A DNA stretch of 64,000 nt, from contig CATQJL010000316.1 of assembly GCA_958299035.1 (NCBI GenBank), positions 15,656,347 to 15,720,346 on the forward strand, in the 5' to 3' direction. Within the stretch, counting starts at the first letter, position 1; each line of letters begins with the position of its first letter. Source of the DNA: Cylicocyclus nassatus. Taxonomy: Eukaryota; Nematoda; Chromadorea; Rhabditida; Strongylidae. The notes under the pieces are model-generated. The model ran no database searches, was not told the DNA's origin, and saw only the letters and a program-made list of their open reading frames with translations. Shown piece by piece: positions 15,530-20,317 of the stretch. Position numbers and translations under genes: made by a program.

Positions 15530-15877
15530 GTAAGCGTTGCGCCGCGGAAACTGCTGACAAACTGGCAGAAACACCGATCCGAATTAATATAGTTTATCTG
15601 TTATAGCACCAAAAGGAATAAGTAGCACCGAACGTATATGAGCAATATTGGCATAGGGATAAACACGTATGCAATGAGGCAAATCGTGAGGATGAGATCA
15701 GGGGTATCACTGGTGGTACGGCGGCGGCCCAAAGAGGATAAAGAAGAGGAGTGATGAGCCATCACTTGGTGTCGTGGCATCGGAGAATCTCCTCGAGAGT
15801 CTCGCTTGACCGTCGTCGTCACGCCCTGAACATATGAGTCATCGTCCGACGAGGAAGCATGCGTAGACATGCTTACA
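15530..15877 (-). repeat. 3' LTR of the helicase-bearing element
   Basis: 348 bp. The sense strand runs TGTAAGCATGTCTACGC to ...GCTTAC. The polypurine tract abuts its 5' side. Confidence 0.8.
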
Positions 15878-15889
15878 CTTCCCCCTTTT
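15878..15889 (-). other. Polypurine tract
   Basis: Sense-strand AAAAGGGGGAAG immediately before TGTAAGC of the 3' LTR, the expected plus-strand priming site. Confidence 0.75.
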
Positions 15890-16082
15890 ACCAACAAGTC
15901 CGTCCTCGGACTTAGTTTTAGGGATAGAAAGGTCTAATTTTAGGGATAGACAAGGTATGAGGAGGACGAATTGGTAGAAAACGGAAGATGGAAGCAAAAA
16001 GCAAAATAAAAGTGAATTAAAGATAAAGCGAACCAAAAACAGGAAAATGCTCAAATATTCTCACCAGAATAGCTGCTTGTGA

Positions 16083-17076
16083 TTATTCGACTGGAAGGTA
16101 CTGACCGAGATCCGTGGCGGGGATGATCGCATGGCGCTCGTCAGCCCAACGAAGGATGGTGGTCAAGGACCTAACTTTCCAAAGGGACTCGGTGTGCCTC
16201 AAAACTAACATACCGTGGCGAGATCGGGTCAGAGCGAAGTTCAATCGTTTGTACTAGTCCAGGAATTCGGCAGATGCGGCTGTCATATCCGTGCGAGTTG
16301 TCAGTAGGATGAAGACGTCCTTTTCACGTCCTTGAATGGAGTCGACTGTGGTTAGCTCCCCCTGATTTCTCTGGGCGAAAGGCAGCAGCCTGCGCAATTG
16401 CTCCTTGTAGAGCGACAGGGTGCATATCGATGAAGGTTCGATATATCAGGCTCGTAAGCGCTGGACTATCGTTCTGTACTCTTCGGCCTCCGCCTCATTG
16501 AAGTAGGAGCGACTCGCGGCCCTCTCCGAATTTCCGGCCACGTCCGAGAATAGAAACGGGGTCTCTCTATCAGGGAAGCGCATTGCGCGGAACATAAGTG
16601 CACGTTGAGCCTCTGTGACACCACTTTTCAGCTGGCCCTGGTAAACGAAGACGTTCGGTAGGTCGTTCAGGCGTGGATGGGAACGGAAAGTGGTGACCAA
16701 CGACGAGACGGGGACCGTTCGAGATCGCATCAAGACATTCATGACGCTTTTCGCTAAGGGGGGGGGGGGCTGGGTTCGAGTTCCTCGAGCATCGGATATG
16801 AGGTTCCAGTTGGTGCACGTCGCCGATGCAGATGTGACGAATCTGAGGGAGACTGTTGGCCATCGCGATGAGCACCGGCTCGGGGATCTGGGATGCTTCG
16901 TCACTGATTAGGGTAAAAAAGCTTCCCAAGTACTTCTCGAACAATCCTTTCGGTCCCGAGGTGTTGAGAAGGGACGCCGTAGTCACGAAGATGACGTGTG
17001 GTGGCCGAACTTTAAACATAATGCGCGCCATCTTCTCAATCGTGTTGGAGACGTCCTTCTTAGAGAACTACTACGA
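16083..17076 (-). pseudogene. UPF1-like superfamily 1 helicase fragment inside the LTR element (broken)
   Basis: Sense-strand protein shows, in order, the C-terminal two-thirds of a UPF1/DNA2-type SF1 helicase: PPHVIFVTTASLLN, motif II ISDEASQIPEP, motif III GDVHQLEP, motif IV SLVTTFRSHP and YQGQLKSGV, motif V TTVDSIQGREKDVFILLTTR, and motif VI NFALTRSRHGMLVL. Motif I (Walker A, GxxGTGKT) is absent; the helicase frame begins directly after the Gag nucleocapsid. Breaks: a frame change at the 12-G run 16758-16769, a TGA at 16446-16448 and a TAG at 16254-16256. The frame ends TAA 16083-16085, about 190 bp before the polypurine tract. In an intact relative such a protein would unwind nucleic acid; this copy is not functional. 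A host-derived capture is an inference. Confidence 0.8.
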
Positions 17077-18274
17077 GAGGATCGACCTGCCTGTTGCCGC
17101 TTTCGTCTCCTTGTCGCACATTAGGAAGCCAAGTGTCCTCGTCCACCGCAGAAATAACAGTAAATATCAGAGAATACCATGCGTGAGGGTCGTCGTAGTT
17201 TTGGTTCTTGAAAGCGTACTCGATTTGGGCCGGCCTGAAAGTTCGCCTATTAGCGAAGCTACTGTGATTAGGAGGCACAGTATAAGACGAAAGAAAGGAG
17301 GACTTTACCTGGTTGTCTTTGGACTTACCTGAAGTGGCGATAGGTTCCGCCGAACTTACTGCCACTGGCACCTGAGGGTGCGATGGATGGATGAGTCGGC
17401 CTGCCGAGGCTTCGGAGAGAAGTTGTTCAACGCGTTCGGCCTCCGCCAAAGCCTCCGAAAGATGCTGGTTTTGCGAAGCGAACGTGAAACCTCAAATCAG
17501 CGTGCAAACGTTGTATAAATTCTTGCAAAAATAAGTCGCCATCAAGGGTTGGATCCCGGCCGGTCGCGTTGCGCAGTAAATTTAATAAGCGAAAGGCAAA
17601 GGTTGAACTAGACTTACCTCTTTCCTGACGGCATGTGGTTAAGACTTGCCTTGCTTCAGCCTTCTGCTTCGGGCCCTCGTAGTGCGTCCTGAGATGATCA
17701 ACTAAAGCTTCGTAATTTACCTTGTCTTTTGCCGATAGGGTCTCGACTCTTTCCCTTGCCACCGATTCCAAATAGGCTACCAGATAATTGGCTTTGTCCT
17801 CAGAAGTTAGGATCTTGCGCCGCATCGAATCCTCCAGACGGCGCAGCCAGAGCGAGAAGGGTTGCGAACTAGAGGTGCCGTAAATGGCGTAACACGGGAG
17901 GGGAGCCCGTCAGGGCAACAGGTAGCTACCAAAGGAATCTGTTCGATACGTGAACCAATTGCGGCAAATGAGTCATTAAGTCCATTAAGCAGGTTGGAGT
18001 TACCTTGGTCGACCTGTTCAGCTAATTGCGCCGTTGCTTTCTTTGCGTCCTTCCATACTTTGATGAGGGCCTCAGTTGTAGCTTCCTTGAGCTCCTTTGC
18101 GTCTCGTCCGTGGACCGTCGAGGCGTCGTCCAGATTGGCCAACGCCCTCGCTAAGGGTGCCGTCACTGCCTCAGTACTCACTGGTGGAGTGGCATCAGCC
18201 ACTGTGGATTGCTCCACAACCGCCTTGGAACGCGTTACCGGTACCGGTACCATAACTAAAAAAGAACGAGTCAC
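17077..18274 (-). pseudogene. gag of the helicase-bearing LTR element (frameshifted)
   Basis: Sense-strand Gag in three overlapping frames. The first (18274 down to about 17900) is an Ala/Thr-rich leader with a predicted helical stretch. The second carries the core retrotransposon Gag domain: SQPFSLWLRRLEDS, KANYLVAYLESVARERVE, HLRTHYEGP, FLQEFIQRLHADLRFHVRFA. The third continues AEAERVEQLLSEA and leads to one zinc knuckle, CYFCGGRGHLAS-stop-C (17118-17159), in which a TAA replaces the residue before the last Cys. Two frame changes, near 17.9 and 17.45 kb, plus this stop make it a pseudogene unless recoding occurs. Domain order is typical of Ty3/gypsy Gag. Confidence 0.75.
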
Positions 18275-19954
18275 CGAGGTTCAATAGTAGCAGCGCAACC
18301 ATACTAGAGTCTTCCAATAATAAAAACGAAAGGATGGACAATCAATCTCAATCTCAAATGGGAAGAGGAAGCTGCGCAAATGAGCGATGAGTGACGAGTG
18401 AGGCGCGCTAAACAGTCTTGGGAGTGGGCGTGGCTAGTACGGTACCCTTAAGTAGGATATTCAAACTGTTTGTTATTTCCTCAGGCCCTTATCTATGCTT
18501 GCCATCTCAAGGAGTGAAAGAAATGAACACGGATAAATCTCATGAACTTTGTATTTACTTCATTTCTTTGCCTTATCTGTTCTCGCGATCTTGGCGTAAT
18601 AAGAAACAAGCAAAAAGTTCAAGCTTTTCCGCTTTATGGCATTTTCTCAGCTTCACTATCTATGCTTCCGATCTCGCCATGAGAAAGTAACGGCCGTGAA
18701 CTTTTCCTTCGGAAACATCTTTGTTTACAATCGTACTGTATCCGATCTACCAAACTGAATTCATGAGAAGAAATCTAAATTCGATGATAAATCTCTTGTT
18801 TGAAAGTCCAGAATTCTTATGGCGTAATTAGTAAAAACTAAGCTGGGAAATGACCGAGGAGTTTTGAGTCTCAAAGGAAGTCCTGAATACATGCTACGCG
18901 TAACTTCAACACTGACGAGGTCGAGTGTAAAAGGAATGAAGCGTTTGAATAGAGTTGCACACAAAGGAGATTGTGTGAGCATGAAAAATTTCAAAGGCGA
19001 AATTGCGCCACTGCGCTCGTTTTCAATTTCGAATGCGTTTTCCGAGACAAAGGAAGCGCACGGGAAGAACTGAGTTTTTAGCTCACGACTCAAAATTTCA
19101 TGATATCACTGGATGTGCGCGAAACACCCATCGAAGGAAACGGACTTGCTAAACGGGTACGCTTGGAGAGAAATAGGGACACCATAACACAGAGTAAAAT
19201 CTAATATCAAAGGAAGATAGAGGAAGCAATCGCACTCGGGAAGTTCTGGTATTCAGACAAATAGCATTATGAGCCTGCCATCTGGCCTGCCTGCTGCGTC
19301 AGAAACGATACTCCAACTTAGGTCGCCAGATGTGCCCTACAAGGTAAAAGAAACTGCGATCGAACGCTAAATATCAATTACGCTCAGACCTAGCTGAGAA
19401 ATCGCCATCAGCCCTACGCTGGAGCAATTTGATAATCAGCATAAAACTGCTGAGAGCACCGTGCGGACAAACAATTATTACCACCCAGCTCAACTTACCC
19501 GCGCGCAACTACTAATTAGGGGGCGAACGCCTGAGCCAACAACACTACAAATCACATACTAAGGGTCTGCACCTTAACTTAACCGGCCGGGAGAACATCT
19601 CATAACACTCACAAACTTAAATTCAGAGCGCTGGATTCAACACTTTCATGGCGTTCTATTTTCCACTGGACGTCCACCATCAGGTGTGCACACTAACTAC
19701 CAGCATAAAATTGCTGGGAACCGCGGAAATCACGTCAGCACAGAGAATCGTGGCTTGACATTTTAATTTCAAAAAATTCGACACACACGTTTCCGGAACC
19801 TGGCCAGGGTTACGGAAAAAGTTGGAAGCCCTTAAAAAATTGTCAAAAACAGTCACAATAAACTCCTCTCAGACGTCGAGCTGCCAAGTCACCGGTGGAG
19901 GCCCATCAGGGCTTTATTCGTGATTTTACTACTCACCTGTTCTCCTCTCGGCGG
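18275..19954 (-). other. Leader region of the helicase-bearing LTR element
   Basis: About 1.7 kb between the primer binding site and gag. No coding frame of note and no second repeat pair recognised. Confidence 0.5.
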
Positions 19955-19972
19955 AACCACTCGCTGCTACCA
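19955..19972 (-). other. Putative primer binding site
   Basis: Sense-strand TGGTAGCAGCGAGTGGTT begins with TGG immediately after the 5' LTR. I could not name the tRNA. Confidence 0.55.
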
Positions 19973-20317
19973 GTAAGCGTTGCGCCGCGCAAACTGCTGA
20001 CAAACTGGCAGAAACACCGATCCGAATTAATATAGTTTATCTGTTATAGCACCAAAAGGAATAAGTAGCACCGAACGTATATGAGCAATATTGGCTTAGG
20101 GATAAACACGTATACAATGAGGCAAATCGTGAGGATGAGATCAGGTGTATCACTGGGTACGGCGGCGGCCCAAAGAGATAAAGAAGAGAAGTGATGAGCG
20201 ACCACTCGGTGTCGTGGCATCGGAGAATCTCCTCGAGAGTTTCGCTTGACCGTCGGCGTCACGCCCTAAACATATGAGCCATCGTCCGACGAAGAAGCAT
20301 GCGTAGACATGCTTACA
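19973..20317 (-). repeat. 5' LTR of the helicase-bearing element
   Basis: 345 bp, about 96% identical to the copy at 15530-15877. Followed on the plus strand by the AGGCA target duplication. Confidence 0.8.

What the first reader, a model, noticed from the sequence alone, without database searches (positions are those of the whole stretch)
15530..20317. LTR retrotransposon carrying a UPF1-like helicase where pol should be
Seen: paired LTRs, perfect AGGCA duplication, primer-site-like sequence, Gag with zinc knuckle, then SF1 helicase motifs II-VI, then a polypurine tract and LTR. Known: LTR elements carry pol; SF1 UPF1-type helicases are not standard cargo. Inference: either a lineage of nematode LTR elements acquired a helicase, or a longer Gag-Pol-helicase element lost everything between nucleocapsid and helicase motif I. 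The missing Walker A motif fits the deletion model.
Basis: partly seen in the sequence, partly recalled or inferred. Interest (0 to 1): 0.88.

Follow-up and report, generated by a model that had tools for sequence, protein, structure and literature searches.

The report
Helicase-carrying LTR retrotransposon, deleted copy
This stretch is a decayed, shortened copy of a large virus-like jumping element of parasitic roundworms whose longer relatives carry the usual replication genes plus a helicase gene of their own, an unusual and apparently long-kept piece of cargo.

Summary
On the MINUS strand at 15529-20317 lies an LTR retrotransposon with a tRNA-Met primer site, broken gag, a UPF1-like SF1 helicase remnant (motifs II-VI, no Walker A), a polypurine tract and a 4-bp duplication (AGGC). 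It occurs in five diverged lineages, largely shares the RT tree, is under purifying selection and forms one clade outside UPF1. Related helicases occur in many strongylids and Heterorhabditis. A second oddity is a weakly chuvirus-like glycoprotein between gag and protease. Young copies with a mostly deleted helicase, and pol-less copies with an open helicase frame, suggest a protein acting in trans. Its role (RNA surveillance/silencing, export or reverse transcription) is inferred, not shown.

The parts
15525..15528 (.). target-site duplication AGGC (left)
   Evidence: 4 bp in 6 of 6 copies
15529..15877 (-). 3' LTR
15878..15889 (-). polypurine tract (minus strand AAAAGGGGGAAG)
   Evidence: a near-identical tract at the same place in the 5 other copies
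16086..17067 (-). helicase remnant, motifs II-VI, broken frame (matches residues 83-408 of the C-terminal helicase piece of copy A)
17060..17063 (.). deletion junction: about 10.0 kb (glycoprotein-like region, PR, RT, RH, IN, N-terminal helicase, Walker A) missing relative to copy A
17118..17159 (-). CCHC zinc knuckle of Gag, with an in-frame stop
17064..18280 (-). gag, broken (frames 17060-17491, 17427-17909, 17807-18280)
18275..19971 (-). 5' leader between primer site and gag, 86-89% identical in copies A-E
19953..19972 (-). primer-binding site, complementary to the 3' end of tRNA-Met (CAT); overlaps the LTR end by one base
19972..20317 (-). 5' LTR
20318..20321 (.). target-site duplication AGGC (right)

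Best explanation
The window holds a dead, internally deleted copy of a large Ty3/gypsy-type LTR element (full length about 14.7 kb) of the order LTR - gag - fusion-glycoprotein-like - protease - RT - RNase H - integrase - helicase - LTR. The helicase is a standing gene of this lineage, not debris: a separate ORF in the place where other elements have env, coding for a lineage-specific N-terminal region of about 500 residues and a complete UPF1-like SF1 core. Shown by sequence: anatomy, the deletion, co-descent with pol, purifying selection, full motif set. Inferred: the protein is an ATP-driven helicase/translocase that acts on the element's own long RNA in trans, most likely keeping it out of nonsense-mediated decay and small-RNA silencing or helping its export and packaging. 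That trans role is suggested by recently moved copies with a mostly deleted helicase and by copies without pol but with an open helicase frame.
For: LTR-bounded copies A (C1:46310895-46325674) and B (C1:49708170-49722791) carry the same gag and helicase pieces about 10 kb apart, with glycoprotein-like, PR, RT, RH, IN and helN pieces between. Order PR-RT-RH-IN-helicase also in L020/L021, L029, L031, L032, L034, L037, L038 (gag and glycoprotein lie outside the fetched stretch in some). Of 64 RT loci of this lineage (>=44% identity) 30 have a helicase match downstream on the same strand within 12 kb, against 0 of 44 other RT loci (34-39%) (both lists capped). RT and helC distances correlate (r 0.92, 0 of 999 permutations as high, 10 elements). 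In 10 element pairs helN has pS 0.74-0.88, pN 0.19-0.40 and helC pS 0.74-0.90, pN 0.11-0.32. Key residues of motifs I-VI (labels recalled) invariant in 13 of 13 aligned cores. 80 helicase loci, 18 with an open frame >=1000 aa at the match. Element helicases form one clade, 100/100. Gene models joining pol and helicase in two other species: P0032 (O. dentatum; PR+RNaseH+IN+AAA_12), P0123 (N. brasiliensis; RT+helicase).
Against: The helicase is not needed in cis: copies C and D have 366 of 366 identical LTR positions and gag-to-integrase pieces without stops, but most of the helicase is gone, and L039, beside one of six RT matches of near-equal score, keeps only fragments. 34 of 64 lineage RT loci have no helicase match in the capped list. 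Copies A and B themselves have interrupted helicase frames. Of the helicase gene models scanned from other species, 17 of 19 show no pol domain. No biochemical, expression or small-RNA data were available, so the function is inference; no start codon or splice site for the helicase ORF is proven. The N-terminal region resembles nothing in the PDB by sequence. The authors of PMC6338049 hold that insect retrotransposon helicases seem to have no essential function in retrotransposition (passage).
Confidence: 0.85

Rival explanations
1. A host UPF1-family gene or fragment was swept into one element by chance (nested insertion or read-through) and is mere passenger DNA.
For: The window copy alone looks like that: gag joined to a helicase fragment without motif I.
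Against: Five diverged lineages share the gene at the same place; purifying selection; element helicases form one clade outside UPF1.
Confidence: 0.03
2. The helicase helps reverse transcription or integration of an unusually long (>14 kb) genome, for example by unwinding RNA structure or displacing strands inside particles.
For: Copies A and B are 14.6-14.8 kb; SF1 core complete; the gene sits directly after integrase.
Against: Young copies of 10.9-11.1 kb moved with most of the helicase gone, though complementation in trans is possible; the helicase is a separate ORF, not fused to pol.
Confidence: 0.25
3. The helicase counters RNA-based host control: it suppresses small-RNA silencing or acts as a UPF1 decoy so that the long multi-ORF RNA escapes nonsense-mediated decay.
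For: UPF1 is the nearest family (PDB profile E about 1e-57; apart from its yeast form NAM7 the next is DNA2, 5e-39). Precedent: retrotransposon SF1 helicases with weak silencing suppression in a plant assay (PMC6338049, passages). Strongylid LTR elements are targets of the Argonaute exWAGO (PMC13195028, passages).
Against: UPF1's own CH and 1B domains (PF09416, PF18141) were found in 0 of the 4 element helicases scanned, so a direct UPF1 decoy is only one possibility; no functional data.
Confidence: 0.4
4. Assembly chimera.
For: None found.
Against: Several independent copies with matching 4-bp target duplications, and gene models from two other species that join pol and helicase.
Confidence: 0.01

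Closest known systems
Ty3/gypsy LTR retrotransposons (Metaviridae), e.g. Cer1 of C. elegans
   Same: PR-RT-RH-IN order, Ty3_capsid-like Gag (just under cutoff), CCHC knuckle, tRNA primer site, polypurine tract, 4-bp duplications
   Different: extra helicase ORF after integrase and a glycoprotein-like region between gag and protease; in the passages of PMC10309623 shown Cer1 has Gag, Pol and CERV, and the word helicase does not occur in that text
SF1-helicase-bearing LINEs of insects (TRAS, Jockey) and isolated SF1H fusions to Ty1/copia parts (Aedes, Leptopilina)
   Same: a retrotransposon carrying a superfamily 1 helicase (PMC5563155, abstract and passages; PMC6338049, passages)
   Different: those helicases are close to those of virga-like plus-strand RNA viruses and sit in LINE ORFs or in single Ty1/copia fusions; here a UPF1-like helicase with its own N-terminal region is kept across a Ty3-type lineage
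UPF1/NAM7 (regulator of nonsense transcripts 1)
   Same: closest solved family for the core and, after the nematode relatives, the main family among the rows listed
   Different: element helicases lie outside the UPF1 clade and PF09416 and PF18141 were found in 0 of 4 proteins scanned
LTR elements with captured ORF3s (bdelloid Juno/Vesta; Anakin BEL-Pao with chuvirus glycoprotein)
   Same: capture of extra ORFs; chuvirus-like glycoprotein (PMC5408684 passages; PMC7642597 passages)
   Different: key words of PMC5408684 name env, DEDDy exonuclease, GDSL esterase and dUTPase; Anakin is BEL-Pao; here the glycoprotein-like part lies upstream of protease

Membership tests
Ty3/gypsy LTR retrotransposon | two LTRs, short target duplication, tRNA primer site, polypurine tract | tested here: met
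Ty3/gypsy LTR retrotransposon | order PR-RT-RNase H-integrase (integrase last) | tested here: met
   absent in the window copy (deleted); met in longer relatives
Ty3/gypsy LTR retrotransposon | RT groups with named Ty3/gypsy elements in a tree | not tested
   no tree with named elements was built; Ty3_capsid E 9.9e-7, 28.8 bits against a cutoff of 29.1
BEL/Pao | BEL/Pao-specific pol families (such as Peptidase_A17; family name recalled) | tested here: not met
   none listed at E <= 0.1 for the 8 ORFs of copies A and B scanned; DUF1759, also known from BEL/Pao (recalled), is listed below cutoff for the Gag frame
UPF1 helicase | SF1 core motifs I-VI | tested here: met
   13 of 13 aligned cores; the window copy itself lacks motif I
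UPF1 helicase | CH domain (PF09416) and 1B domain (PF18141) | tested here: not met
   0 of 4 element helicases
UPF1 helicase | position inside the UPF1 clade | tested here: not met
   element group 100/100, apart from the 12 UPF1 rows (UPF1 group itself 87/78); the tool flags long branches, and SEN1, DNA2 and ZNFX1 rows were not in the tree
virga-like viral helicases of insect LINEs | closest to alphavirus-like SF1 helicases | tested here: not met
   UPF1 E about 1e-57; best viral chain an ORF1ab helicase, E 6e-9; PF01443 matches of 14.5-26.4 bits (cutoff 21) are far below AAA_12 in the same proteins; virga-like helicases themselves were not compared
env-bearing retroelement | fusion glycoprotein | tested here: inconclusive
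   PF24664 Monjiviricetes_fusion E 2e-4 (19.9 bits, cutoff 27) in L033; no such match for copy A at E <= 0.1

The most novel reading that the evidence does not exclude
A strongylid-centred lineage of retrovirus-like Ty3 elements encodes its own UPF1-family motor as a trans-acting counter-measure to host RNA surveillance, and carries its fusion glycoprotein inside the gag-protease frame. The family would then be a cooperating set in which helicase-minus and pol-minus copies are mobilised by one another.
Probability: 0.3. Interest if true: 0.87.

Novelty: new variant of a known kind. Interest (0 to 1): 0.74.

Why it matters
The precedents found here for helicases in retroelements are insect LINEs and isolated LTR fusions. 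A helicase kept through several diverged LTR lineages with largely matching RT trees means it does something for the element. Because the nearest family is UPF1, the core of nonsense-mediated decay, it makes a concrete question testable: do retroelements with very long RNAs bring their own RNA-surveillance motor? It also suggests that many 'DNA2/NAM7-like helicase' gene models in hookworm and strongyle annotations are transposon genes.

Tried and rejected
Nested insertion of a helicase gene with boundaries of its own: rejected, the helicase lies in the same order in several LTR-bounded copies and further loci. Recent capture of host UPF1: rejected by the tree. Helicase as part of the pol frame: rejected, it is a separate ORF in L020, L029, L031 and L038. 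Relation of the N-terminal region (helN) to UPF1's N-terminal domains: none detectable (hhalign probability 0.1 on a 0-100 scale; no PDB match better than E 1.3). Microhomology at the window's junction: at most a few bases by eye. Structure prediction of helN was not possible. Splice-site search upstream of the helicase ORF: inconclusive. Counting copies of the helicase-minus tail: not answered. Literature: in 9 searches no listed title or abstract opening names a UPF1-like helicase in an LTR element; the searches cover open-licence PMC papers only, and most listed papers I saw as a listing. Passages were read from PMC5563155 (abstract too), PMC5408684, PMC10309623, PMC13195028, PMC6338049, PMC6431247 and PMC7642597; no paper was read whole.
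Full report
What is in the window. Two LTRs, 15529-15877 and 19972-20317, match at 334 of 347 aligned positions (K2P 0.0385) and are flanked by AGGC on both sides. The element reads on the minus strand: 5' LTR, a primer site at 19953-19972, a 1.7-kb leader, a broken gag, a broken helicase fragment, a polypurine tract at 15878-15889, 3' LTR. The 17-base primer-site complement occurs 94 times in the genome, 62 of them in one tandem array on C305 (my count of its list); a 1.2-kb piece of that array holds 4 tRNA-Met genes. In three of the four the 17 bases match exactly; the best-scoring gene (57.4 bits) differs at one base. 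Gag gives Retrotrans_gag E 6.5e-5 (just below cutoff) and the helicase AAA_12 E 2.7e-13. The zinc knuckle is there with a stop inside it; the helicase fragment has a frame break and two stops. The copy is dead.

What was lost. Searching the interior against the window's own genome (514.7 Mb, 369 contigs; C223 and C316 have the same lengths, 91,661,033 and 93,436,948, as the contigs of two proteins labelled Cylicocyclus nassatus) gives two sets of matches that break at the same point, window 17060-17063. The helicase part and the gag part are 91-93% identical to copies in which they lie about 10 kb apart. Copy A spans C1:46310895-46325674 and copy B C1:49708170-49722791 between LTRs. In copy A the 10 kb hold, in order, a glycoprotein-like region, aspartyl protease (E 3.6e-6), RT (6.6e-25), RNase H (5.4e-23), integrase (H2C2 1e-17; rve 9.2e-7, below cutoff), an N-terminal helicase region and the Walker A motif. 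Both copies have some broken frames, in the helicase too. None of the 42 matches listed other than the window itself spans the junction, so the deletion appears private. Another short copy, E (C316:30969307-30972856), lost gag and pol by a different deletion and keeps helicase residues 29-408.

The helicase belongs to the lineage. A genome search with the C-terminal helicase piece gave 111 matches (102 of 321 candidates scored), which I merged to 80 loci, 18 with an open frame of at least 1000 aa at the match. From these I fetched ten more loci (L029-L038). L029, L031, L032, L034, L037 and L038 have PR-RT-RH-IN-helicase, some with broken RT or integrase frames; L020/L021 has the full set without stops in any piece. 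Four of the ten do not fit: L030 has gag and helicase only (LTR pair 99.6% identical over the 269 bases held), L033 lacks integrase, L035 lacks RT and integrase, and L036 shows no gag or pol piece in the 8.5 kb fetched. Of 64 RT loci of at least 44% identity, 30 have a helicase match downstream on the same strand within 12 kb, 21 of the 30 at 4.6-5.8 kb; of 44 RT loci of 34-39% identity, 0 do. Both lists are capped (RT: 110 of 1469 candidates scored), and of the 111 helicase lines I gave the 84 that remain when further pieces of the same loci are left out.

Co-descent and selection. For the ten elements with RT, helN and helC pieces, RT and helC distances correlate at r 0.92 and RT and helN at 0.88, with 0 of 999 permutations as high in each of the 15 gene pairs tested. 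(A,B)+G, F29+F33 and F32+F38 recur wherever present, F31+F37 in five of six gene trees (in the RNase H tree F34 joins F37, weakly). The RT and helN trees agree fully; the places of the F32/F38 group, on a long branch, and of F29/F33 vary in other gene trees. L030, L035 and L036 were left out for lack of RT, and A/B, F29/F33 and F32/F38 are close pairs, so the effective number is about seven. Synonymous differences are near saturation (helN pS 0.74-0.88, helC 0.74-0.90) while pN is 0.19-0.40 and 0.11-0.32 in ten pairs, the close pair A-B not counted: purifying selection, at rates like or somewhat faster than gag and the glycoprotein-like region and clearly faster than RT.

What the helicase is. 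Key residues of SF1 motifs I-VI are invariant in 13 of 13 rows (motif labels recalled). Its nearest solved family is UPF1 with yeast NAM7 (profile E 1e-57 and 9e-54), then DNA2 (5e-39), SMUBP-2 (2e-37), SEN1 (2.5e-37) and ZNFX1 (8e-32); coronavirus-type helicases are far behind. In one search (best 120 of 549 rows shown, 8000 candidates scored) the first 36 rows are 34 strongylid proteins and 2 without a name; most of what follows carries UPF1 names or UPF1 domains. In a maximum-likelihood tree of 40 rows (9 of 49 prepared rows left out: fragments, near-duplicates, or rows whose core my cut missed) element helicases form one group at 100/100, apart from UPF1 and SMUBP2-like rows. Long branches are flagged there, above all L032/L038, and SEN1, DNA2 and ZNFX1 were not in the tree, so the exact origin is open. 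The N-terminal region of about 500 residues matches no PDB chain and not UPF1.

Distribution. Protein searches list relatives in Ancylostoma, Haemonchus, Nippostrongylus, Necator, Oesophagostomum, Cylicostephanus, Heligmosomoides, Teladorsagia, Cooperia, Trichostrongylus and Heterorhabditis. Two gene models join pol and helicase: P0032 (O. dentatum) and P0123 (N. brasiliensis). Of the other models scanned none shows pol domains: 0 of 9 (one, P0075, has a BED finger) and 0 of 8; short gene models need not reach pol. Absence from Caenorhabditis was not tested directly.

How it probably works. Copies C and D have LTR pairs identical at 366 of 366 positions, hence moved recently, with gag-to-integrase pieces free of stops, but most of the helicase is gone (C keeps helC 235-408). 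L039, beside one of six RT matches of near-equal score, keeps only helN 298-340 and helC 330-406; I did not compare the six with each other. Conversely, L030, L033 and L035 lack pol parts but keep helicase frames of 1055-1241 aa. A protein that acts in trans fits both. What it acts on is inference: UPF1 kinship, a >14-kb RNA with several ORFs, and Argonaute control of strongylid LTR elements (PMC13195028, passages) point to RNA surveillance or silencing; help with reverse transcription or export are the main rivals.

Known precedents. Insect LINEs (TRAS, Jockey) carry SF1 helicases of virga-like viral origin; isolated fusions to Ty1/copia parts are reported in Aedes and Leptopilina (PMC5563155; PMC6338049). 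Bdelloid LTR elements carry other enzymes (PMC5408684). None of the nine searches listed a title or abstract opening about a UPF1-like helicase in an LTR lineage. I therefore call this a new variant of a known kind.

Noticed in passing
L033:2-3865 (also L010:1208-5115): A weakly chuvirus-like fusion glycoprotein (PF24664 E 2e-4, below cutoff) lies between the Gag zinc knuckle and the protease, in L033 in one 1288-aa open frame. Env in this place seems unusual.
   Followed up: partly
9534-12528: A second LTR element: 816-bp LTRs 99.9% identical, CTTA on both sides, short interior with a cysteine/histidine-rich ORF (10152-10745) without Pfam match; no pol was noticed.
   Followed up: partly
12611-12949 and 14203-14500: Long inverted repeats (147 and 128 nt, 88-93% complementary), like the ends of a DNA transposon.
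   Followed up: no
15174-15438: Palindromic repeat (108-nt arms, 89% complementary) just left of the element, possibly a MITE.
   Followed up: no
G000 C305:36247637-36363703: 62 of 94 exact genome matches to the primer-site complement lie in one tandem array; a 1.2-kb piece holds 4 tRNA-Met genes.
   Followed up: partly
copies A and B (L009, L012): helN differs at 1% of synonymous sites but RT at 14% between A and B: perhaps recombination between copies, as by template switching.
   Followed up: no
L036 and C223:84.2-86.1 Mb: Several helicase loci cluster here; L036 has an 1100-aa helicase frame without gag or pol pieces in 8.5 kb. Possibly a stand-alone or domesticated copy.
   Followed up: no
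43471-43836 (minus): Guanylate cyclase catalytic-domain exon, E 3.3e-9, probably an ordinary host gene.
   Followed up: no
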